Origin: Bathymodiolus japonicus methanotrophic gill symbiont
GTDB taxonomy: Bacteria; Pseudomonadota; Gammaproteobacteria; Methylococcales; Methylomonadaceae
Length of the DNA stretch: 54,814 nt
Reading direction: 5' to 3'
Assembly (NCBI RefSeq): GCF_019721995.1
Contig: NZ_BLYC01000024.1
Coordinates: forward strand, 1 to 54,814
Part shown: piece after piece, positions 1 to 54,814 of the stretch
Layout: every line of letters begins with the position of its first letter
Position numbering within the stretch: position 1 is the first letter of the stretch
The notes under the pieces: generated by a model
The model's input: the letters and a program-made list of their open reading frames with translations, nothing else
What the model was told of the DNA's origin: nothing
Databases searched by the model: none
Program-made: the position numbers and the translations under genes

Positions 1-7
1 TAACCAA

Positions 8-60
8 GTCGAAACGCTGAGAAGCGTCTATCAGGAATTATCCCCTGGTACTGATGAGAC
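8..60 (+). ncRNA. Type II hammerhead ribozyme, copy 1
   Basis: Contains every conserved core element in order: stem II 5' arm GTC (8-10), GAAA (11-14), stem III CGC/GCG around loop TGAGAA, cleavage triplet GTC ending at C28, stem I TATCAGG (29-35) paired with CCTGGTA (44-50), the CTGATGA box (51-57) and stem II 3' arm GAC (58-60). The essential G10.1-C11.1 pair is present. Stems I and III are closed by loops and stem II is open, which defines type II. Predicted self-cleavage is after base 28. That the motif family self-cleaves is established; activity here is inferred. Confidence 0.93.
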
Positions 61-87
61 AGATTAACTAAAACAGGAATAAATAAA

Positions 88-537
88 ATGAGAATAGTAG
101 AGATAAAAAACAGATACGATGACGTTATTTACTCGGTTGAGATATCCCAAGCAGATGAATACACTGATCTAATAGGTGCTGATCTACGGGATGTTAAATT
201 AATAGGTGCTGATCTACGAGATTTTGACTTGACTGGTGCTGATCTAAGAGGTGCTGATCTACGAAGTGCTGATCTAAGAGGTGCTGATATACGAAGTGCC
301 TCTCTAAGAGGTACTGATCTACGAAGTGCTGATATAACAGGTGCTAATCTAACCTGTGCTGATCTAACAGGTGCTAGTTTAAAGGGTACTAATTTATTAG
401 GGGCTTATCTAATGATGGCTGATTTTACAGGTGCTGATCTAACAGGTGCTAATCTAATAAGTTCTGATCTAAGATTCGCTAAGTACACACAAGAACAGAT
501 TGACTCAGCGATCACAGACGAAGTAACAATATTCTAA
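88..537 (+). CDS. Pentapeptide-repeat protein
   Basis: 149 residues. After a short N-terminal segment (MRIVEIKNRYDD...) come about twenty A(D/N)LxG-type pentapeptide repeats (residues about 27-130), then a conserved C-terminal tail YTQEQIDSAITDEVTIF. Pentapeptide repeats fold as a right-handed quadrilateral beta-helix. Some family members mimic DNA and inhibit gyrase, but nothing here fixes a function. An AGGA ribosome site lies in the leader after the upstream hammerhead. The stop codon is 4 bases before the next ribozyme, so the gene sits alone in a unit bounded by two ribozymes. The paralogues at 627, 1078, 2236 and 53648 share the tail. There is no signal peptide, so it is probably cytoplasmic. 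Confidence 0.88.
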   Translation: MRIVEIKNRYDDVIYSVEISQADEYTDLIGADLRDVKLIGADLRDFDLTGADLRGADLRSADLRGADIRSASLRGTDLRSADITGANLTCADLTGASLKGTNLLGAYLMMADFTGADLTGANLISSDLRFAKYTQEQIDSAITDEVTIF

Positions 538-541
538 CCAA

Positions 542-594
542 GTCGAAACGCTGAGAAGCGTCTATCAGGAATTATCCCCTGGTACTGATGAGAC
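542..594 (+). ncRNA. Type II hammerhead ribozyme, copy 2
   Basis: Base-for-base repeat of copy 1: GTC 542-544, GAAA 545-548, stem III CGC/GCG, cleavage after C562, stem I TATCAGG/CCTGGTA (563-569 with 578-584), CTGATGA 585-591, GAC 592-594. An outer TAA (535-537, also the stop codon of the gene before) can pair with TTA (598-600) across an internal loop and extend stem II. Confidence 0.93.
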
Positions 595-626
595 AGATTA
601 ATTAAACTAAAACAGGAACAAATAAA

Positions 627-995
627 ATGAGCATGATAAATAAAATTGATATTAAAAACATTTATGGGGAAATTATTTATTCCCACAAATTAAGTGTACC
701 AGTTGAAGAATCTAGTATTAATAGTAAAGATCTTAGAGGAGCTGATTTAAGAGGGTTTGATCTTAGAAGTTCTGATTTAAGAGGGTTTGATTTAAGAGGT
801 GCTAAATTATGTGGTGCTAAATTATGTGGTGCTGATTTAATAGATGCAGATTTAAGAGGTGCTGATTTAATAGATGCTGATTTAATTTATGCTCATATGA
901 TACGTACTAATTTAATAGGTTCTAATTTAAATGGTGCTAATTACACAAAAGAACTTAAAAAATATTGTATTACCGACGAAACGACAATATTCTAA
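627..995 (+). CDS. Pentapeptide-repeat protein
   Basis: 122 residues. The N-terminal segment of about 33 residues ([19 protein letters not shown]...) is followed by A(D/K/N)LxG-type pentapeptides (residues 34-105) and the tail YTKELKKYCITDETTIF. The N-terminus is nearly identical to that of the broken paralogue at 1078, which implies a recent duplication. It also resembles the gene at 88 (EIKNRYDDVIYS versus DIKNIYGEIIYS). Start ATG 627 lies 10 bases after an AGGA ribosome site. Hammerheads flank it on both sides (542-594 and 1000-1052). It probably makes a small soluble beta-helix; its partner is unknown. Confidence 0.87.
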   Translation: MSMINKIDIKNIYGEIIYSHKLSVPVEESSINSKDLRGADLRGFDLRSSDLRGFDLRGAKLCGAKLCGADLIDADLRGADLIDADLIYAHMIRTNLIGSNLNGANYTKELKKYCITDETTIF

Positions 996-999
996 CCTA

Positions 1000-1052
1000 G
1001 TCGAAACGCTGAGAAGCGTCTATCAGGAATTATCCCCTGGTACTGATGAGAC
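1000..1052 (+). ncRNA. Type II hammerhead ribozyme, copy 3
   Basis: GTC 1000-1002, GAAA 1003-1006, stem III CGC/GCG with loop TGAGAA, cleavage after C1020, stem I 1021-1027 with 1036-1042, CTGATGA 1043-1049, GAC 1050-1052. The core is identical to copies 1 and 2. Upstream flank CCTA replaces CCAA, in the proposed stem II internal loop. Confidence 0.93.
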
Positions 1053-1077
1053 AGATTATATTAAATAGGAAATTAAA

Positions 1078-1597
1078 ATGAACATGATAAATAAAATTGA
1101 TATTAAAAACATTTATGGGAAAATTATTTATTCCCACAAATTAAGTGTACCAGTTGAAGAATCTAGTATTAATAGTAAAGATCTTAGAAGTGCTAAGTTA
1201 AGAGGGATTGATTTAAGAGGTGCTGATTTAAGAGGGTTTGATTTAAGAGGTGCTAACTTAATAGGTGTTAACTTAATAGGTTCTGAGTTAATAGATGCAG
1301 ATTTAAGATTTGCTAACTTAATAGATGCAGAGTTAATAGATGCAGATTTAAGAGGTGCTAAACTTAATAGGTGCAGATTTAATAGATGCAGATTTAAGAT
1401 TTGCTAAATTAAGAGGTGCTAAATTAAGAGGTGCTAATTTAATAGATGCAGATTTAAGATTTGCTGATTTAAGATTTGCTGATTTAATAGATGCTAATAT
1501 GATACGTACTAATTTAATAGGTGCTGATTTAAATGGCGCTAATTACACACAAAGGCAGAAAAAATGTTGTATTACCGACGAAACGAAAATATTTTAA
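1078..1597 (+). pseudogene. Pentapeptide-repeat gene with a frameshift
   Basis: Two overlapping open frames, 1078-1407 (109 residues) and 1355-1597, are one gene. The first has the N-terminus shared with the gene at 627 and pentapeptides up to about base 1366. An extra A in GCTAAAC then shifts the frame, and the repeats continue in the second frame to the family tail [17 protein letters not shown]. Removing one A restores an uninterrupted protein of about 172 residues. The repeat codons remain intact on both sides, so the indel is recent or a sequencing error. The longer repeat domain compared with its neighbour suggests in-frame repeat expansion. Confidence 0.8.
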
Positions 1598-1601
1598 CCT
1601 A

Positions 1602-1668
1602 GTCGAAACGCTGAGAGATGATCTACCAAGTGCTGATCTACGAAGTAAAGAAAAAGAGATTTAAACAA
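1602..1668 (+). other. Chimeric remnant: hammerhead 5' half plus pentapeptide and gene-end fragments
   Basis: Bases 1602-1616 match the 5' half of the ribozyme (GTC, GAAA, CGCTGAGA) and then run into GATCTACCAAGTGCTGATCT, which is pentapeptide-type coding repeat. From about 1648 the sequence AAAAAGAGATTTAAACAAGTC matches the 3' end of the gene that closes the window (54790-54807). The stretch looks like a junction left by recombination between array units. No functional ribozyme can form from this copy. Confidence 0.7.
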
Positions 1669-1722
1669 GTCGAAACGCCGTGATGGCGTCTACAGTGATT
1701 AATCGCACTGTACTGATGAGAC
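1669..1722 (+). ncRNA. Type II hammerhead ribozyme, copy 4 (variant)
   Basis: All core positions are kept (GTC 1669-1671, GAAA 1672-1675, CTGATGA 1713-1719, GAC 1720-1722), while both helices differ and still pair: stem III CGCC/GGCG with loop GTGAT, and stem I TACAGTG/CACTGTA (1691-1697 with 1706-1712). Predicted cleavage is after C1690. Compensating changes in two helices are strong evidence for an RNA structure. Flanking TTTAA (1660-1664) can pair with TTAAA (1726-1730) to extend stem II. Confidence 0.94.
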
Positions 1723-1775
1723 AGATTAAACTCAAAATAAAATAGGAATAAGAGTATGAATAATAAGTTAAAAAG

Positions 1776-2201
1776 TTGAAAGATTTAAAGGAAGTTATTG
1801 CTGATGCTTATACTGCTTATAAGTCTGCTAGTGCTGCTACTGCTACTGCTGCTTATAATGCTGATAGTGATGCTGCTTATGCTTCTTATAGTGCTGCTAG
1901 TGATGCTTATGCTGCTTATAATACTGCTAGTGATGCTGCTTATGCTGCTTATAATGCTGCTAGTGATGCTGCTCATGCTGCTTATAAGTCTGATAGTGAT
2001 GCTGCTTATGATGCTTATAAGGCTGCTACTGTTGCTACTACTGCTGCTACTAGTGACGCTACTGCTGCTTATAAGGCTGCTAGTGATGCTGCTACTGCTG
2101 ATTATAATGCTGCTAGTGATGCTGCTCATGCTGCTTATAAGTCTGATAGTGATGCTGCTTATGATGCTTATAATGCTGATAGTGATGCTGCTTATGAATA
2201 A
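1776..2201 (+). CDS. Alanine/tyrosine-rich 11-residue repeat protein
   Basis: 141 residues if started at TTG 1776. It is built almost wholly of an 11-residue repeat of the form Y-N-A-A-S-D-A-A-x-A-A, which suits a long amphipathic (hendecad) helix or helical bundle. The paralogue at 54029 has the expected ATG start (MNNKLKNLKE). Here the matching ATG at 1756 is out of frame after a small insertion (AAAAGTTGAA), so this copy either starts at TTG or is damaged at its 5' end. GCT/GAT/TAT codon repetition leaves other frames open too; those frames have no plausible products. It follows hammerhead copy 4 and its stop is followed by a hammerhead 3' tail. Confidence 0.7.
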   Translation: MKDLKEVIADAYTAYKSASAATATAAYNADSDAAYASYSAASDAYAAYNTASDAAYAAYNAASDAAHAAYKSDSDAAYDAYKAATVATTAATSDATAAYKAASDAATADYNAASDAAHAAYKSDSDAAYDAYNADSDAAYE

Positions 2202-2202
2202 T

Positions 2203-2217
2203 AAAGAGACAGATTAT
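2203..2217 (+). ncRNA. Hammerhead 3' tail only (remnant)
   Basis: AAAGAGACAGATTA directly after the alanine-rich gene matches the end of the ribozyme plus its leader, but GAAA, stem III and stem I are absent, so no cleavage is expected. The same truncated element follows the paralogous gene at 54463, so gene and tail were duplicated together. Confidence 0.6.
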
Positions 2218-2235
2218 ATTAAATAGGAAATTAAA

Positions 2236-2529
2236 ATGAAACATAAAATTGACCTATCAAATAGAGATTTATCACGTAGCCGATTATCACATAAAGATTT
2301 ATCTGGAGCAGATTTATCTGGTTCTAATTTAAAACGTGCTTATTTAGTTGGTGCAGATTTATCAAATGCCAACCTATCTAATGCAGATCTAAGAGGTGCT
2401 AATCTAATGTGTGCCAATCTAAGAGGTGCTAATCTAAGTGTTCGATATAAGAGGTGCTGATTTATGTGTGTAGCGTACACACAAGATCAGATTGACTCAG
2501 CAATAACGGACTAAACAACAATATTCTAA
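2236..2529 (+). pseudogene. Decayed pentapeptide-repeat gene
   Basis: Starts as MKHKIDLSNRDLS..., like the gene at 53648, and encodes good pentapeptides for about 68 residues before the open frame ends at 2460. A loss in the GCTGAT codons near 2440 (GTTCGATATA) shifts frame. A second small indel in TGTGTGTAGCG (about 2464-2475) is needed to reach the family tail (YTQDQIDSAITD), and a GAA-to-TAA change at 2511-2513 then truncates the tail, leaving ACAACAATATTC unread. With two indels and one nonsense change this looks like real decay. The 74-residue open frame could still give a truncated repeat protein. Confidence 0.75.
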
Positions 2530-2533
2530 CCAA

Positions 2534-2586
2534 GTCGAAACGCTGAGAAGCGTCTGCGGTGATTTATCTAACCGTACTGATGAGAC
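2534..2586 (+). ncRNA. Type II hammerhead ribozyme, copy 5 (variant)
   Basis: GTC 2534-2536, GAAA 2537-2540, stem III CGC/GCG, cleavage after C2554, stem I TGCGGT (2555-2560) paired with ACCGTA (2571-2576, one G-U), CTGATGA 2577-2583, GAC 2584-2586. This is a third independent stem I sequence with pairing kept. The stem I loop retains ATTTATC, matching ATTATC/ATTAATC in other copies. Confidence 0.92.
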
Positions 2587-2616
2587 AGATAACTCAATAA
2601 AACAGGAATAAATAAG

Positions 2617-2787
2617 ATGAACATTAAAGAATTAGAAAGATTAGAAAATTTATCAAACGTTTTACGTGGTGAATACATGTCCGCCGATGTTTGTAACTGT
2701 GTTACTGAATATGATGCATATAAAACAGCTTACATGGCTTTTTCTTACGCATCATATTGCTATCATAAATCAGAGCGTAATAACTAA
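2617..2787 (+). CDS. Small protein of unknown function
   Basis: 56 residues, beginning MNIKELERLENLSNVL and ending in ...SYCYHKSERNN. The C-terminal half is rich in Tyr, Ala and Cys (TEYDAYKTAYMAF, then YASYC). The ATG is preceded by an AGGA site in the standard post-ribozyme leader (AACAGGAATAAATAAG). It is the only ORF between hammerhead copies 5 and 6, making the shortest unit of the array (about 258 nt between cleavage sites). No family is recognised; the position between two intact ribozymes and the standard leader argue that it is expressed. Confidence 0.7.
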   Translation: MNIKELERLENLSNVLRGEYMSADVCNCVTEYDAYKTAYMAFSYASYCYHKSERNN

Positions 2788-2791
2788 CCAA

Positions 2792-2844
2792 GTCGAAACG
2801 CTGAGAAGCGTCTACAGTGATTAATCGCACTGTACTGATGAGAC
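2792..2844 (+). ncRNA. Type II hammerhead ribozyme, copy 6
   Basis: GTC 2792-2794, GAAA 2795-2798, stem III CGC/GCG with TGAGAA loop, cleavage after C2812, stem I TACAGTG (2813-2819) with CACTGTA (2828-2834), CTGATGA 2835-2841, GAC 2842-2844. It combines the stem III of copies 1-3 with the stem I of copy 4. This is the last complete copy before the terminator, so the downstream fragment would run to about 5007. Confidence 0.93.
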
Positions 2845-2878
2845 AGATTAAACTCAAAATAAAATAGGAATTAATAAA

Positions 2879-3028
2879 ATGAAAATTGAAAAAGCAAATA
2901 AAAAAGCTAATAGAGATTTTTTAAATGCACAAAAAGATTTTAGAAGAGCAGAAAAAAATCTTACAGAAAAGAGAAAAGAACTAATTAAATCAAACCAAGA
3001 ACTTTTAAAATCAAGATTATCAAACTAA
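2879..3028 (+). CDS. Small lysine-rich coiled-coil protein
   Basis: 49 residues (MKIEKANKKANRDFLNAQKD...), almost entirely charged and predicted helical with heptad-like spacing of F/L/A (DFLNAQKDFRRAEKNL). The ATG at 2879 follows AGGA in the leader shared with the units at 1723 and 54480. The next gene begins 16 bases after its stop. Basic composition could suit nucleic-acid or membrane-surface contact, but no family is recognised. Confidence 0.65.
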   Translation: MKIEKANKKANRDFLNAQKDFRRAEKNLTEKRKELIKSNQELLKSRLSN

Positions 3029-3044
3029 GAGAGGAGTAAATAAA

Positions 3045-3206
3045 ATGGGTTATAAACTACTAGAATGGATTTACATTATACTTTTTTGTATTGGGCTATC
3101 TATCTTAATCACTTCAATAGTACTGTTGAATGTTAAGTTAAATTATCCAGCTGAATATAATGATTTTTACAATCATGTTTTAAACCTTTTGGGAAAAATA
3201 AAATGA
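3045..3206 (+). CDS. Small membrane protein
   Basis: 53 residues with one clear membrane segment (about residues 8-28, WIYIILFCIGLSILITSIVL) and a short C-terminal tail (NVKLNYPAEYNDF...). A strong ribosome site GAGGAG lies 9 bases upstream. Its stop overlaps the ATG of the next gene (ATGA at 3203-3206), indicating translational coupling with another membrane protein. The pair resembles small two-gene membrane modules found in phages (lysis or exclusion functions), but no specific family match is seen. Confidence 0.68.
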   Translation: MGYKLLEWIYIILFCIGLSILITSIVLLNVKLNYPAEYNDFYNHVLNLLGKIK

Positions 3207-3604
3207 ATACTAATAAATTAGAAAATAAAAAGGGAATAAAAAATAAAAAGGTTATTAAAGTTTTCATTTCATTATTTATCTGCGCGATCATCCTTAATGT
3301 ATCAATTGCAGGATTATTATTAAAGCAATACCAACCCGAGATTTTAGACCTGCTTTATTACTCATTCAAGAGTAAACAGGTTGATCGTGTCCCAGAAATA
3401 TACGCTGATAAAGATGCTATTGACGCCCATAATGATGCCCTTAACGATTATAAAAAGACAGTTGAGGACTATAATGAAGCTGTTAAGGTTTATCGCTCTA
3501 GTAAAAAGGATTACGAGGTTGCCGTTGCAGCAATGAACATGGCAGATCAAAACTCTAAGTATGCAGTTATAAAACTTACAAAGCTTATTGTAATGGTCAA
3601 GTAG
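3203..3604 (+). CDS. Membrane-anchored coiled-coil protein
   Basis: 133 residues. A lysine-rich N-terminus (residues 1-20) is followed by a membrane segment (about 21-42, VFISLFICAIILNVSIAGLL) and then a long charged helix (residues 60-120, many Asp/Lys/Tyr, heptad-like). The N-terminal charge predicts N-in, C-out topology, with the coiled coil in the periplasm. That layout is the general plan of an i-spanin (Rz-like) but also of many unrelated proteins, and there is no adjacent lipoprotein here. It is coupled to the preceding small membrane gene by ATGA overlap. Confidence 0.7.
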   Translation: MNTNKLENKKGIKNKKVIKVFISLFICAIILNVSIAGLLLKQYQPEILDLLYYSFKSKQVDRVPEIYADKDAIDAHNDALNDYKKTVEDYNEAVKVYRSSKKDYEVAVAAMNMADQNSKYAVIKLTKLIVMVK

Positions 3605-3638
3605 AATACTTTTAATTAAGATAAAACAGGAACAAAAA

Positions 3639-3833
3639 ATGAACAGTAAATTAAAAGAGTTAAAAAATGCCTATAAGACTGCCACTGAAAATCTTGAATA
3701 TGCTTATCATTCTTATGAGTCAGCTCATGAGTTAGCTTATGATACTGCTAATTATTCTTTAGTTCGTGATGCTTATAATACTTATATAAATGCTCGTAAT
3801 GCTTATGAAGCGTTTATAAATCTAAAGGAATAA
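3639..3833 (+). CDS. Small tyrosine/alanine-rich helical protein
   Basis: 64 residues (MNSKLKELKNAYKTATENL...). The N-terminus resembles that of the alanine-rich proteins at 54029 and 1756 (MNNKLKNLKEVI), and the body repeats A-Y motifs about every 11 residues (NAYKTATENLEYAYHSYESA). It therefore looks like a short, less regular member of the same hendecad-repeat family. An ACAGGAA ribosome site precedes the ATG; no function is known. Confidence 0.65.
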   Translation: MNSKLKELKNAYKTATENLEYAYHSYESAHELAYDTANYSLVRDAYNTYINARNAYEAFINLKE

Positions 3834-3837
3834 CAAA

Positions 3838-3999
3838 ATGAACACAACTTTAAAACTAGAAATGATAGTAAAGTTATTAGATGAAGTAATAAAAGAAATT
3901 GACAAAGGAAAAGATCGCTATCTAGTGATTGACAATAAAAGATTAAGAACTAAGAACGAGAGATTATTTAAAGAAAACCAAAGACTTTTGGAGAAATAA
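3838..3999 (+). CDS. Small charged helical protein
   Basis: 53 residues (MNTTLKLEMIVKLLDEVIKE...), highly charged and predicted fully helical, ending RLRTKNERLFKENQRLLEK with leucine-zipper-like spacing. The ATG lies 4 bases after the previous stop, and its own stop is 1 base before the next ATG, so it is translated as part of the tightly packed 3639-4944 group, with TAAAGGAA giving the ribosome site. Possibly a dimerising small protein; no family recognised. Confidence 0.6.
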   Translation: MNTTLKLEMIVKLLDEVIKEIDKGKDRYLVIDNKRLRTKNERLFKENQRLLEK

Positions 4000-4000
4000 A

Positions 4001-4447
4001 ATGAAAGATAGAAAACCCGACGCGCAAGGGAATATAAACTGTACTGGGTGCGTTGATTGCTTCAACTGTGTGGACTGCGTTAATTGCTATAACTGCACTG
4101 ATTGCGTTAAGTGCGTTGATTGTTATAAGTGCTATGCTTGCTCTAAGTGCGTTAGGTGTTCTTATTGCTTTAAGTGTTCTTATTGCGTTAAGTGTCATGG
4201 TTGCTCTGATTGTGTCTCATGTAAAAGATGCCATGAATGTACTGATTGCCATGATTGCTCTGATTGTGTCTCATGTAAAAGATGCTATGAATGTACTGAT
4301 TGCCATGATTGTGATAATTGTTCTAAATGCCTAATATGTGTTTTTTGTATAGAGTGTAAAAGATGTAAAAAATGCCATGAATCCGAAAAATGCAATGATT
4401 TAGATTCGGCAAAATGGGCTTTTAGCTTCAAAGGAGTAATAAAATGA
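4001..4447 (+). CDS. Cys-X-X tripeptide-repeat protein
   Basis: 148 residues. After about 12 residues, cysteine occurs at every third position in an unbroken run of about 38 (CVDCVNCYNCTDCVKC...), followed by a short tail without repeats. The other two positions are mostly Val/Tyr/Ser then Asp/Asn/Lys. A 54-bp direct duplication (4202-4255 and 4256-4309) shows growth by repeat expansion. Such spacing could bind many metal ions, form a three-residue-per-turn helix with a stacked Cys face, or form a disulfide ladder; the sequence does not decide. There is no signal peptide, so a reducing cytoplasm favours metal or free thiols. It overlaps the next gene by 4 bases. Confidence 0.8.
   Translation: MKDRKPDAQGNINCTGCVDCFNCVDCVNCYNCTDCVKCVDCYKCYACSKCVRCSYCFKCSYCVKCHGCSDCVSCKRCHECTDCHDCSDCVSCKRCYECTDCHDCDNCSKCLICVFCIECKRCKKCHESEKCNDLDSAKWAFSFKGVIK
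4202..4309 (+). repeat. 54-bp tandem duplication inside the Cys-repeat gene
   Basis: Two consecutive 54-base units (4202-4255, 4256-4309), each starting TGCTCTGATTGTGTCTCATG, differ by a single C/T. Length is a multiple of three, so the frame is kept and six CXX triplets are added. Confidence 0.9.
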
Positions 4448-4944
4448 AAAACAAACCAGACCACCTAGATATTATTACAAGAATATGCGAGGCCACTAAT
4501 GACGACATAACCTATAAAATAATGCCAGAAATAATTAAAACACCTTTCGACTTCATACAAAGAGAAGAGATTGTAAATGAAATACAAATACGAATTAAGG
4601 AAAACGGCCTGCACATACAAAAAGCAGATATACGTCACATGATAAGGTACGACGGAGATGCAAAGGAAACAATCAATAGATGCCCTGGGCTAACTGAGTC
4701 AAGAGCGCTATTAAAGAAAGGCGATAGATTCTATAATAAATATTGCATATCATCGTACCATTTCTTTTACGACTTATTTAGGGATAATCCACATATCAGA
4801 ATAAACACCGTTGGTAAAAATAAAATAATGAGGGCTATGGGTTTCAGGAAATGGGGCGTAATTAGCATAGACGCAAGAAACCGGACTATATTCACAATCG
4901 ATAACTACGATCGTTCAGACGTAAGGATATTGATGGAGTCATAA
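4444..4944 (+). CDS. Phage protein of unknown function, last gene of the array operon
   Basis: 166 residues, starting inside the previous gene's stop (ATGA overlap), with a GGAG ribosome site. Soluble and mixed alpha/beta in character, with no repeats, unlike its neighbours. Visible segments include a charged N-terminal helix region (residues 1-60), HIQKADIRHMIRYDGDAKE (about 60-78) and a basic C-terminal part with FRKWGVISIDARNRTIFTI. The latter resembles a small winged or beta-hairpin nucleic-acid-binding end, but this is only an impression. The terminator at 4981 follows 36 bases after its stop. Confidence 0.7.
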   Translation: MKNKPDHLDIITRICEATNDDITYKIMPEIIKTPFDFIQREEIVNEIQIRIKENGLHIQKADIRHMIRYDGDAKETINRCPGLTESRALLKKGDRFYNKYCISSYHFFYDLFRDNPHIRINTVGKNKIMRAMGFRKWGVISIDARNRTIFTIDNYDRSDVRILMES

Positions 4945-4980: not shown

Positions 4981-5007
4981 AAGCCTGCTATCTGCGGGCT
5001 TTTTTTT
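4981..5007 (+). terminator. Rho-independent terminator of the hammerhead array
   Basis: Stem AAGCCTGC (4981-4988) pairs with GCGGGCTT (4994-5001) with one G-U, loop TATCT, followed by a run of T to 5007. Oriented for + strand transcription, directly downstream of the last array gene. Confidence 0.9.
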
Positions 5008-5071
5008 GCCTACCACCCACCACCAAGAAAACGGTTGTATAAAGGCTTTAGATATGGTAGTAATTGAGTTG

Positions 5072-12951: not shown

Positions 12952-13494
12952 CTATAGATAAGAGCATACCCTATACTCAAGAAGCCCAGAATCTCCATCG
13001 AATGTAAGAGCTGAACACTCAGGGATTATTTTCTTAAGAATATTTGGAACCATCATCTCGTTTGAACTAGCATGGTTTATGACAAGATTGCCCTCATTAT
13101 ATGAGATTGTGAAGTTGTTGTTTGTCTTCTCAGTTGCTTTCCGGTTGTAGCATGTACCACCTCCTTTCATAGAAGCAGCACTCCAAAAGCCTAGATGTGA
13201 TACGCCAGTTGCGGTATATTCGATATTAGGTCTGAAATATATCTCTACTTTTTTGGTCAACTGTTTGTCATAAGAAAGTCCAAGGGAATCAGACAATAGT
13301 TCAAGAGTAGTCTCACTAAAATTACCATTCCCTGCACGCATCCATCCGGTATCGTTATCACAAGGCCTGGAACTTCTTTCATACTGCCACCTCATAACGT
13401 ATGTCCAGTTAGTGTCTTTTGACTTGTTGTCTTCAAAAACATTAAATGTGTGGCCATTACCCCTGTTGTAGAAATTCCAAGTAGGGTGTAGCAC
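12952..13494 (-). CDS. Tail/appendage protein, C-terminal part (probably frameshifted from 13457-14542)
   Basis: 180 residues open from a GTG with no ribosome site, overlapping the end of the upstream frame by 38 bases. The absence of a start signal and the close spacing suggest that a one-base indel near 13480 split a single protein of about 530 residues. The sequence is beta-rich with Asn/Gly/Thr/Trp (TWNFYNRGNGHTFNVFEDNK, IYFRPNIEYTATG), as in phage fibre or baseplate appendage proteins. It ends YRVCSYL at 12952. No specific family is recognised. Confidence 0.6.
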   Translation of the reverse strand: MLHPTWNFYNRGNGHTFNVFEDNKSKDTNWTYVMRWQYERSSRPCDNDTGWMRAGNGNFSETTLELLSDSLGLSYDKQLTKKVEIYFRPNIEYTATGVSHLGFWSAASMKGGGTCYNRKATEKTNNNFTISYNEGNLVINHASSNEMMVPNILKKIIPECSALTFDGDSGLLEYRVCSYL

Positions 13495-53086: not shown

Positions 53087-53212
53087 AATGTTTCTGCATT
53101 TTTTTTTATTTTTTTTGAGTTGAGACTACCCCACCACTTCGCAATTCGGAATTCGAAACCCCGTGGTCGACTTTATATGGGAATTGAATAAGATTCTAAT
53201 ATTCGAATATTC

Positions 53213-53276
53213 AATGTTCTAATGTTCTAATGTTCCAATGTTCTAATGTTCCAATGTTCTAATGTTCCAATGTTCT
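53213..53276. repeat. Eight 8-bp iterons AATGTTCY
   Basis: Exact 8-base steps: T-T-C-T-C-T-C-T at the last position, that is alternating AATGTTCT and AATGTTCC after the second copy. A 14-bp palindrome (53198-53211) precedes it directly. Iterons of this regularity are typical of initiator or terminase small subunit binding sites. Confidence 0.85.
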
Positions 53277-53326
53277 ATATATTAGTATATCCTTATATGC
53301 TTATAGACACAGCTAGCCCTACCAGA

Positions 53327-53565: not shown

Positions 53566-53593
53566 TTGCAATTAGATAGTAATGCGGTATAAT
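53566..53593 (+). promoter_or_regulatory. Sigma70-like promoter of the hammerhead array
   Basis: TTGCAA (53566-53571), a 16-base spacer, TATAAT (53588-53593). Start expected near 53600, 48 bases before the first pentapeptide gene. It is the only good + strand promoter seen for the array, so it probably drives all units if the window ends connect. Confidence 0.75.
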
Positions 53594-53647: not shown

Positions 53648-53941
53648 ATGAATAGAAAAATGAAGCATAAGATTTGCCTATCAAGCACTGATATGTCAAA
53701 CACTATAATCGTAAATACTGATTTATCGAATGCTGTTTTAATTGACACAGATTTAATTTATACAGATTTAAGTGGTACAGATTTAAGTCATGCAGATTTA
53801 ACATGTGCTAATTTAACAGGTTGTATTTTACACGGTACTAATTTGACAGGCACAGATTTAAGGGGTGCTATTTTAACCCGTGCTAAGTACACACCAGAAC
53901 AGATTGAATCAGCAATTACCGACGAAACAACAATATTTTAA
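53648..53941 (+). CDS. Pentapeptide-repeat protein, first gene of the array
   Basis: 97 residues: MNRKMKHKICLSSTDMSN, pentapeptides of the (A/T)DLxx type (residues about 18-80), then the family tail YTPEQIESAITDETTIF. It uses Thr more than Ala in the first repeat position (LIDTDLIYTDLSGTDLSHAD). The MKHKI start is shared with the decayed gene at 2236. It has no hammerhead upstream, as expected for the first gene after the promoter, and a complete hammerhead begins 5 bases after its stop. Ribosome site AGGGAAAC. Confidence 0.86.
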   Translation: MNRKMKHKICLSSTDMSNTIIVNTDLSNAVLIDTDLIYTDLSGTDLSHADLTCANLTGCILHGTNLTGTDLRGAILTRAKYTPEQIESAITDETTIF

Positions 53942-53945
53942 CCTA

Positions 53946-53998
53946 GTCGAAACGCTGAGAAGCGTCTACAGTGATTAATCACCCTGTACTGATGAGAC
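53946..53998 (+). ncRNA. Type II hammerhead ribozyme, copy 7
   Basis: GTC 53946-53948, GAAA 53949-53952, stem III CGC/GCG with TGAGAA, cleavage after C53966, stem I TACAGTG (53967-53973) with CCCTGTA (53982-53988, one T-C mismatch), CTGATGA 53989-53995, GAC 53996-53998. The mismatch is far from the core, so activity should survive. The stem I loop keeps ATTAATC. Confidence 0.9.
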
Positions 53999-54028: not shown

Positions 54029-54463
54029 ATGAATAATAAGTTGAAAAATTTAAAAGAAGTTATTGATGATGCTTATAAGTCTGCTAGTGATGCTGCTACT
54101 GCTGCTTATAATGCTGATAGTGATGCTGCTACTGCTGCTGCTAGTGATGCTGCTTATGCTGCTACTGCTTATGCTGCTACTGCTGCTGCTAGTGATGCTG
54201 CTTATGCTGCTTATAATGCTGCTAGTGATGCTGCTTATGATGCTTATAAGTCTGATAGTGATGCTGCTTATGATGCTTATAAGGCTGCTACTGTTGCTAC
54301 TACTGCTGCTACTAGTGATGCTACTGCTGCTTATAAGGCTGCTACTGCTGCTGCTACTGCTGCTTATAATGCTGCTAGTGATGCTGCTAATGCTGCTTAT
54401 AAGTCTGATAGTGATGCTGCTTATGATGCTTATAATGCTGATAGTGATGCTGCTTATGAATAA
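54029..54463 (+). CDS. Alanine/tyrosine-rich 11-residue repeat protein
   Basis: 144 residues, ATG 54029 after GGAATAAGAGT. MNNKLKNLKEVIDDAYKSAS, then repeated YNAASDAAYAA-type 11-residue units, a non-repeat insert (KAATVATTAATSDATAAYKA) and more units ending DSDAAYE. It is the intact paralogue of 1776-2201; the last about 75 residues are almost the same in both. Ala-rich hendecads predict a long helix with Tyr in a stripe, resembling Ala-rich ice-binding helices or coiled-coil bundles. Function unknown. The hammerhead at 53946 precedes it. Confidence 0.78.
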   Translation: MNNKLKNLKEVIDDAYKSASDAATAAYNADSDAATAAASDAAYAATAYAATAAASDAAYAAYNAASDAAYDAYKSDSDAAYDAYKAATVATTAATSDATAAYKAATAAATAAYNAASDAANAAYKSDSDAAYDAYNADSDAAYE

Positions 54464-54464
54464 T

Positions 54465-54478
54465 AAAGAGACAGATTA
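54465..54478 (+). ncRNA. Hammerhead 3' tail only (remnant)
   Basis: AAAGAGACAGATTA after the alanine-rich gene, identical to 2203-2217. It lacks GAAA, stem III, the cleavage site and stem I, so no cut is expected between this gene and the next. Confidence 0.6.
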
Positions 54479-54506: not shown

Positions 54507-54800
54507 ATGAATACTAATAAAATGGCTCAAGAAATTGTTAAGAATGATGTAGCCTCATGCCTAACTACAATGGTAACTCAGATGGTTGAGGGTGGTGCCT
54601 TCTATAAATATGATGAAGAAACAGAACAATGGGAAGAGCCTTTAGAGTTCTGGGACGTATCAGACTGGCTAAAGAAAAAATTAAGAGATAAGGGCGAGAA
54701 TGTAGTTGAAGAGTTTGGCTTAAATATCTGGTGCAGAATGACAAGCGGACAAGCTATTTGCATGGATTACGTTATTCAAGATATTGCAAAAGAGATTTAA
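54507..54800 (+). CDS. Small acidic phage protein of unknown function
   Basis: 97 residues: MNTNKMAQEIVKNDVASCLT, then FYKYDEETEQWEEPLEFWDV and SDWLKKKLRDKGENVVEEFG, ending MDYVIQDIAKEI. The Trp/Glu-rich segment (EEPLEFWDVSDWL) looks like a small phage protein seen beside replication or accessory genes elsewhere; no function is known. No internal repeats, unlike most array genes. A fragment matching its 3' end and the start of the following hammerhead is found at 1648-1680. The truncated hammerhead begins 5 bases after its stop. Confidence 0.72.
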   Translation: MNTNKMAQEIVKNDVASCLTTMVTQMVEGGAFYKYDEETEQWEEPLEFWDVSDWLKKKLRDKGENVVEEFGLNIWCRMTSGQAICMDYVIQDIAKEI

Positions 54801-54804
54801 ACAA

Positions 54805-54814
54805 GTCGAAACGC
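54805..54814 (+). ncRNA. Type II hammerhead ribozyme, cut by the window end
   Basis: GTC, GAAA and CGC (54805-54814) are the first ten bases of the element. The last 13 bases of the window equal bases 5-17, so the missing part could be copy 1 if the ends join, or another copy where an assembly stopped in the repeat. Confidence 0.7.

What the first reader, a model, noticed from the sequence alone, without database searches (positions are those of the whole stretch)
1..4944. Operon of repeat-protein genes separated by tandem type II hammerhead ribozymes
An element of about 53 bases lies between small genes at 8, 542, 1000, 1669, 2534, 2792 and 53946. Each copy holds the complete hammerhead core in the order expected for an open stem II: GTC-GAAA, stem III, GTC^, stem I, CTGATGA, GAC. 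Hammerheads are known in phages (established knowledge), but I know of no description of a phage operon in which nearly every unit of a set of repeat-protein genes is bounded by one. Predicted cleavage would turn one transcript into separate mRNAs of about 534, 458, 670, 864 and 258 nt in the first part of the array.
Basis: partly seen in the sequence, partly recalled or inferred. Interest (0 to 1): 0.95.

Follow-up and report, generated by a model that had tools for sequence, protein, structure and literature searches.

The report
Phage operon cut by hammerhead ribozymes
A phage genome carries seven small RNA elements of a self-cutting kind between genes of an accessory operon, which probably chop one long message into single-gene messages; such rows have been described in prophages before, but they turn out to be long and frequent in many phages, including isolated ones in which their purpose can be tested.

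Summary
Seven type II hammerheads with intact cores lie on the + strand at the stated places (7 pattern matches, none in 100 shuffles; Rfam RF02276 passes 5 of 7). The window is one contig of a bacterial genome and looks like a phage; a second, diverged phage contig there carries seven more. The novelty claim does not hold: Perreault et al. 2011 described clustered hammerheads flanking single genes in prophages and showed cleavage of three tandem arrays. New here: a census. In IMG/VR, 182 of 288 non-redundant copies have an ORF's stop codon within -3..5 nt of stem II (random 62 of 2866); an SD and start follow a median 25 nt later; 77 of 226 loci hold two or more, never on mixed strands. Stretches of thirteen Streptomyces phages (R4, Hank144 and others) carry 108 copies, 6-10 each, in 81 of 110 intergenic gaps of 60-400 nt. 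Best reading: cutting of an accessory operon into insulated single-gene mRNAs whose units are gained and lost. Cleavage was not measured; the role is inferred. Two of seven window copies have weak pseudoknots, two score below Rfam's cut-off, and none lies between 2845 and 4944.

The parts
8..60 (+). type II hammerhead, cleavage after 28
   Evidence: RF02276 44.4 bits; MFE fold is the three-way junction; loop I-tail pairing only 3 bp
88..537 (+). pentapeptide repeat protein, 149 aa
   Evidence: PF00805 E 5.5e-43
542..594 (+). type II hammerhead, cleavage after 562
   Evidence: RF02276 44.2 bits; starts 4 nt after the stop codon
627..995 (+). pentapeptide repeat protein, 122 aa
   Evidence: PF00805 E 1.6e-23
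1000..1052 (+). type II hammerhead, cleavage after 1020
   Evidence: RF02276 42.7 bits; loop I-tail pairing only 3 bp
1078..1597 (+). pentapeptide repeat gene, open frame broken (ORFs 1078-1407 and 1355-1597 in different frames)
   Evidence: PF00805 on 1078-1407
1602..1616 (+). 5' half of a hammerhead, rest lost
1669..1722 (+). type II hammerhead with different stem III, cleavage after 1690
   Evidence: RF02276 43.3 bits; 6-bp loop I-tail pairing
1756..2201 (+). Ala/Ser/Asp-rich repeat gene; stop codon close to its start, unlike the copy at 54029
   Evidence: my reading; listed ORFs start later, at TTG 1776 or 1798
2206..2214 (+). 3' end of a hammerhead (GAGACAGAT), rest lost
2236..2460 (+). 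pentapeptide repeat protein, 74 aa
   Evidence: PF00805 E 6.2e-20
2534..2586 (+). type II hammerhead, cleavage after 2554; loop I and tail both differ from the other copies and still pair (6-bp run)
   Evidence: 31.4 bits, below cut-off; MFE fold is not the full hammerhead
2617..2787 (+). 56-aa protein of unknown function
   Evidence: no Pfam or PHROG match
2792..2844 (+). type II hammerhead, cleavage after 2812
   Evidence: RF02276 41.9 bits; 6-bp loop I-tail pairing
2879..4944 (+). tail of the operon without hammerheads: seven small genes including a Cys-rich repeat protein (4001-4447)
4981..5009 (+). possible intrinsic terminator of the operon
   Evidence: 3 terminator-like sites found, 2.4 expected, so weak alone
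53566..53593 (+). possible sigma-70 promoter of the operon (TTGCAA-16-TATAAT)
   Evidence: 6 promoter-like sites found, 8.3 expected, so weak alone
53648..53941 (+). pentapeptide repeat protein, 97 aa, first gene of the array
   Evidence: PF00805 E 4.9e-23
53946..53998 (+). type II hammerhead with damaged upper stem I, cleavage after 53966
   Evidence: 33.8 bits, below cut-off; MFE fold is not the hammerhead
54029..54463 (+). Ala/Ser/Asp-rich repeat protein, 144 aa
   Evidence: ORF; no Pfam or PHROG match
54468..54476 (+). 3' end of a hammerhead, rest lost
54507..54800 (+). 97-aa protein; its relative on contig C25 lies 29 nt downstream of a hammerhead
   Evidence: tblastn 64.7% over 51 aa; phrog_26364
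54803..54814 (+). 5' end of a hammerhead cut by the contig end

Best explanation
The elements are type II hammerhead ribozymes in the accessory operon of a phage. Each cuts the nascent transcript at its NUH site, just after the stop codon of one gene and before the Shine-Dalgarno sequence of the next. The upstream mRNA would end in the stem III hairpin with a 2',3'-cyclic phosphate some 20-25 nt after its stop codon; the downstream mRNA would begin with a 5'-OH, the stem I hairpin and a leader of 57-66 nt. One transcript thus becomes mostly single-gene mRNAs with standard ends, so that each gene's expression and decay depend little on its neighbours (the effect for which engineers use ribozyme insulators such as RiboJ, recalled). 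This suits a region of small, quickly replaced genes, where HHR+gene units can be added or dropped. Shown here: the sequences, predicted folds, compensated changes, placement and conservation. Inferred: cleavage in the cell, the mRNA ends, insulation, and gain or loss by recombination at the repeats.
For: Cores intact in 7 of 7 window copies and in seven copies found by my finder on a diverged phage contig of the same genome (six in L129; one in L339), of which Rfam lists five. In the 15 own-genome copies compared (7 on C24, 7 on C25, 1 on C30; the copy on C54 with the same sequence as that on C30 left out), stem I pairs 3 to 6 change on both sides with pairing mostly kept, and the MFE fold is the hammerhead in 12 of 15. 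Loop I-tail runs of 4 or more Watson-Crick pairs in 112 of 181 IMG/VR copies of set A against 14% with shuffled tails. IMG/VR cluster representatives between a stop codon and an SD-start on the same strand: 199 of 287, against 3 of 287 on the other strand and 110 of 2863 at random places; stop within -3..5 nt of stem II: 182 of 288, 9 of 287, 62 of 2866. No mixed-strand locus among 77 with two or more. Stretches of 13 Streptomyces phages: 108 RF02276 hits, all on the strand of the genes around them; 81 of 110 intergenic gaps of 60-400 nt hold one; annotated start a median 25 nt after. Cleavage of three tandem arrangements in vitro and of one in E. coli is published (PMC3088659). HHR+gene units present or absent between the same neighbours.
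Against: No cleavage data for these RNAs. Two window copies fall below the Rfam cut-off and do not fold first into the hammerhead; copies 8 and 1000 have only a 3-bp loop I-tail contact, 542 a 5-bp run perhaps in another register. At least two window genes (1078, 1756) look broken, so part of the array may be decaying. Placement is weaker in set B (both signs 132 of 218, other strand 9, random 131 of 2118) than in set A (127 of 175, 1, 71 of 1740). With deposited gene calls the stop-to-ribozyme gap in Streptomyces phages is wider (median 16 nt, 30 of 96 within -3..10), and 12 of 108 copies, 6 of them in R4, lie inside an annotated CDS. Some units do not follow the HHR+gene rule (g21 in Omar and Alvy, g26 in Omar, g19 in Alvy), and genes found in at most 6 of 12 phages have hammerheads on both sides only slightly more often than shuffled (15 of 38, 10.6 expected, 294 of 5000 shuffles as high).
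Confidence: 0.72

Rival explanations
1. The elements matter as DNA: short near-identical repeats between genes serve as seams for homologous recombination that shuffles accessory genes; ribozyme activity is incidental.
For: Copies at 8, 542 and 1000 are identical; half-elements mark junctions inside the repeat; eight array proteins of the two phage contigs are 61-78% identical while terminase and portal are 53-56%; HHR+gene units come and go.
Against: Two other array proteins are only 44-46% identical and five have no match. In IMG/VR, copies of one locus are about 71% alike at the median by a rough measure, against 63% between loci. Stem changes are compensated and the strand fits the genes, which DNA seams would not need.
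Confidence: 0.1
2. Two neighbouring cuts release RNAs that are religated to circular or spliced mRNAs, by the ribozyme's reverse reaction or by RtcB; the excised unit carries both halves of the hammerhead and could refold it across the gene.
For: Anatomy: 5'-stem I-CUGAUGA-GAC ... GUC-GAAA-stem III-GUC, with the same stem II letters in all seven window copies.
Against: No RtcB found in the host genome (98.9% complete), while the control search rings in 9 of 14; Perreault et al. write that they were unable to detect spliced or circular products.
Confidence: 0.06
3. Relic array: duplicated hammerheads that once worked and now decay in this phage, with no present function.
For: Half-elements and broken genes in the window, two copies below cut-off; C62 holds a paralogous locus in which the hammerhead is cut down to its 5' half.
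Against: All seven cores are intact and five copies fold correctly; a diverged relative also has an array, and in Streptomyces phages copies recur at matching junctions.
Confidence: 0.1

Closest known systems
Clustered hammerheads of prophages (Perreault et al. 2011, PMC3088659)
   Same: Several hammerheads (types I, II and III in their Figure 3 legend) flank single genes or short blocks in prophage genomes; [quoted passage not shown]
   Different: The text read tells of a triple arrangement and three tested tandem arrangements; here 7 in the window and up to 12 in a phage stretch by two finders together; the stop-ribozyme-SD spacing and unit turnover are measured here
Rfam RF02276 Hammerhead_II
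   Same: Core, open stem II, closed stems I and III
   Different: Two of seven window copies score below the gathering cut-off
RiboJ-type ribozyme insulators of synthetic biology (recalled)
   Same: A self-cleaving hammerhead gives the following gene a fixed 5' leader
   Different: Engineered, of type III origin and placed after promoters (recalled); here natural, type II and placed between genes

Membership tests
Type II hammerhead ribozyme (RF02276) | Invariant core CUGANGA / GAAA / NUH cleavage triplet | tested here: met
   7 of 7
Type II hammerhead ribozyme (RF02276) | Stems I and III closed by loops, stem II open | tested here: met
   pairing found for 7 of 7 by the finder, MFE fold in 5 of 7 window copies
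Type II hammerhead ribozyme (RF02276) | Rfam gathering score | tested here: inconclusive
   5 of 7 above, 2 below
Type II hammerhead ribozyme (RF02276) | Loop I to 3' tail pseudoknot, potentially 4 bp or more in a majority (PMC3088659) | tested here: inconclusive
   window runs of 3, 5, 3, 6, 6, 6 and 4 bp
Type II hammerhead ribozyme (RF02276) | Self-cleavage | not testable with these tools
   needs in vitro transcription
Clustered prophage hammerheads | Several hammerheads flank individual genes in a phage genome, on the gene strand | tested here: met
Clustered prophage hammerheads | Cleavage of the long transcript at each copy | not testable with these tools
   published for three other arrangements
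Pentapeptide repeat proteins (PF00805) | Match above Pfam's gathering score | tested here: met
   5 of 10 operon proteins scanned

The most novel reading that the evidence does not exclude
Hammerhead arrays are a general, modular gene-expression system of phage accessory regions: each small gene travels with a ribozyme that gives its mRNA standard ends, and because the stop codon abuts or even shares a base with stem II, a ribosome terminating translation sits on the stem II/GAAA strand and holds the ribozyme open, so that cutting waits for translation to finish (translation-gated mRNA segmentation).
Probability: 0.27. Interest if true: 0.82.

Novelty: new member of a known kind. Interest (0 to 1): 0.55.

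Why it matters
The roles of prokaryotic hammerheads are called an open question in a 2017 review (PMC6155905, passages). The census shows that arrays are frequent in phage contigs, run on one strand in each of the 77 multi-copy loci seen, and sit between stop and start codons; and it names isolated phages, R4 and Hank144 among them, with 6-10 copies each in the stretches read. Their role can therefore be tested by 5'-OH end mapping in an ordinary phage infection. If insulation or translation gating holds, it is a natural counterpart of engineered ribozyme insulators and a reason why accessory genes can be exchanged freely.

Tried and rejected
Circular mRNA through RtcB: no RtcB match in the host genome. 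Link to this phage lineage: of 80 IMG/VR loci with a related terminase one holds a finder hit (many stretches are short), so the array does not simply come with the phage type. Link to host lineage: only G000 among 61 genomes searched has RF02276 matches (stricter filters). Link to repeat proteins: no pentapeptide family among those matched by 227 downstream proteins in IMG/VR. My first gene-context script, with naive ORF tiling, put 97 of 181 copies inside a tiled ORF, only 22 of these on the same strand, and was swamped by spurious ORFs; it was replaced. Nearest-stop counting could favour small gaps, so I recounted with the longest ORF. An earlier, wider finder gave 2 hits in reversed IMG/VR sequence against 183 real ones; the final one gave 0. 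Promoter and terminator scans are not above chance by number. The loop I-tail contact is not present in every copy. The genome contigs pattern scan found 2 loci. A look for a phage context in PMC11300833 gave no passage. The link to aminoglycosides binding a hammerhead (passage in PMC9239200) is only a thought.
Full report
What is there. The window is the whole of contig C24 (54,814 bases) of a 4.97-Mb bacterial genome. PHROG matches to terminase, head-tail adaptor, tail protein, endolysin and helicase show that it is a phage or prophage. On the + strand seven elements match the complete type II hammerhead core, with none in 100 shuffles. Rfam accepts five at its cut-off; 53945 scores 33.8 and 2533 31.4 bits against 37. 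Stop codons end 4 nt before stem II in the copies at 542, 1000, 2792 and 53946, and ORF starts follow 25-34 nt after the six copies measured (the 1669 copy was left out there).

The array. It begins with a pentapeptide-repeat gene at 53648, after a promoter-like site, and ends as a ribozyme array at 2844; the seven remaining small genes to 4944 have none, and a terminator-like hairpin follows at 4981. Five ORFs are pentapeptide repeat proteins; two others are Ala/Ser/Asp-rich repeat genes (my reading). At least two genes (1078, 1756) look broken. Half-elements at 1602, 2206, 54468 and the contig end show breaks inside the repeats.

Second phage. Contig C25 is a diverged relative (53% identity over the matched part of terminase, 56% portal). 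Of the array proteins compared, eight are 61-78% identical, two 44-46%, and five have no match; one further query was out of frame and is dropped. My finder gives it seven hammerheads, six in L129 and one in L339; Rfam lists five of them. Contigs C30 and C54 have one each, with the same sequence, before a small protein gene with a signal-peptide-like start, and C62 has a paralogous locus in which the hammerhead is cut down to its 5' half. Across 15 own-genome copies stem I pairs 3 to 6 show changes on both sides with pairing mostly kept, and 12 of 15 fold first into the hammerhead. Loop I and the 3' tail have a 6-bp run in copies 1669, 2534 and 2792, both sides being different in 2534, but only 3 bp in copies 8 and 1000.

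Prior art. Perreault et al. 2011 (section 6 read whole; [quoted passage not shown] coli. A 2017 review (passages) says that hammerheads were in many instances found flanking ORFs for small proteins of unknown function and calls their role open.

Census in IMG/VR. Two pattern scans, with GTC/GAC and GGC/GCC stem II letters, each stopped at 120 stretches. The core-plus-stem finder gives 406 hammerheads in 226 of the 240 stretches and none in reversed-sequence controls; they fall into 299 clusters. Of 287 cluster representatives with enough flank, 248 have a same-strand stop codon within -15..30 nt, 231 an SD-start within 60 nt (median 25), and 199 both, against 3 on the opposite strand and 110 of 2863 random places. 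Counting the longest ORF, 182 of 288 have the stop codon within -3..5 nt of stem II, against 9 of 287 and 62 of 2866. With nearest-stop counting, 50 of 248 stops are TAG sharing the first G of stem II. Terminator-like hairpins in the same stretches lie further from the stop (median 17 nt; 61 of 123 have a stop in range) than the first hairpin of the hammerhead (median 9, n 315). 77 of 226 loci hold two or more, none on mixed strands, and 82 of 137 intervals under 1000 nt are filled at least 70% by one ORF. At most 43 of 227 downstream proteins match Pfam at E 0.001, counting memberships; ArdA, DUF932, DUF7249, SprT-like and helicase domains appear.

Isolated phages. A BLAST of one IMG/VR array led to Streptomyces phages. 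In stretches of 13 of them, 108 of 109 Rfam hits are Hammerhead_II, 6-10 per phage, all on the strand of the genes around them. The feature tables that I saw list no ribozyme there. With deposited genes, 81 of 110 gaps of 60-400 nt hold one and the start codon lies a median 25 nt after (n 95); the stop-to-ribozyme gap is a median 16 nt, less tight than in IMG/VR, and 12 of 108 lie inside an annotated CDS, six of them in R4. Matching junctions were sought for eight Hank144 copies; two (5385, 6549) had none. In the others stems differ, partly by compensated changes, and some copies differ only at the free core position; the finder demands core and stems, so core conservation there is partly by construction. 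Gene-order strings of 12 phages (GirlDinner, near Janus, left out) show units such as g4-H-g3 against g4-H-g21-H-g3 (Marav, Salutena), g2-H-g9 against g2-H-g26-H-g9 (Marav, Salutena), and g0-H-g8 against g0-H-g27-H-g8 (Omar) and g0-H-g19-H-g27-H-g8 (Paedore). Omar and Alvy also have g21, and Omar g26 and Alvy g19, without a hammerhead on one side. Genes found in at most 6 of 12 phages have hammerheads on both sides in 15 of 38 cases (10.6 expected, 294 of 5000 shuffles as high), conserved genes in 9 of 82 (26.6 expected, none of 5000 shuffles as low); the phages are related, so these numbers are only indicative.

Reading. The placement, strand rule and recurrence fit co-transcriptional cutting between genes, leaving the SD on the downstream piece and a hairpin soon after the stop codon on the upstream one. 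Insulation of accessory genes and cassette turnover are my inference. The closeness of the stop codon to stem II suggests that a terminating ribosome masks the ribozyme; this is untested and is offered as the boldest reading. RtcB-made circles are unlikely in this host. On checking, the identity range of array proteins between the two phage contigs was mended, and I lowered the DNA-seam rival from 0.12 to 0.10 for that reason.

Verdict. A real, well-formed array and a new member of a known kind. The added value is the scale, the placement rule and the isolated phages in which the role can be tested. Literature searches: over open-licence PMC papers only; their listings showed no paper on hammerhead arrays in Streptomyces phages.

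Noticed in passing
L353:7388-7505 (-), Streptomyces phage Omar: A 118-base stretch matches the Rfam bacterial SSU rRNA model (68.4 bits, positions 106-311 of 1533): a piece of 16S-like sequence in a phage.
   Followed up: no
window 4001-4447: Cys-rich repeat protein with a Cys roughly every third residue; phrog_15341 match, function unknown. Similar proteins on C25 (L129:12320-12694 and 13193-13477).
   Followed up: partly
window 53200-53290: Tandem short repeats (TTCTAATGTTCCAATG-like) between the terminase operon and the array, perhaps an origin or end region (read).
   Followed up: no
L343 (G000 contig C62), around 9476 of the contig: Natural paralogue of the C30/C54 locus in which the hammerhead is cut down to its 5' half upstream of the same protein gene: a ready-made comparison with and without the ribozyme.
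   Followed up: partly
window 1078-1597 and 1756-2201: Two repeat genes of the array look broken (frame change; early stop), which may mean decay of part of the array or an assembly fault in repeats.
   Followed up: partly
L339:17807-17860 (-), contig C25: A lone hammerhead in another part of the second phage, just after a gene for a small protein with a signal-peptide-like start.
   Followed up: partly
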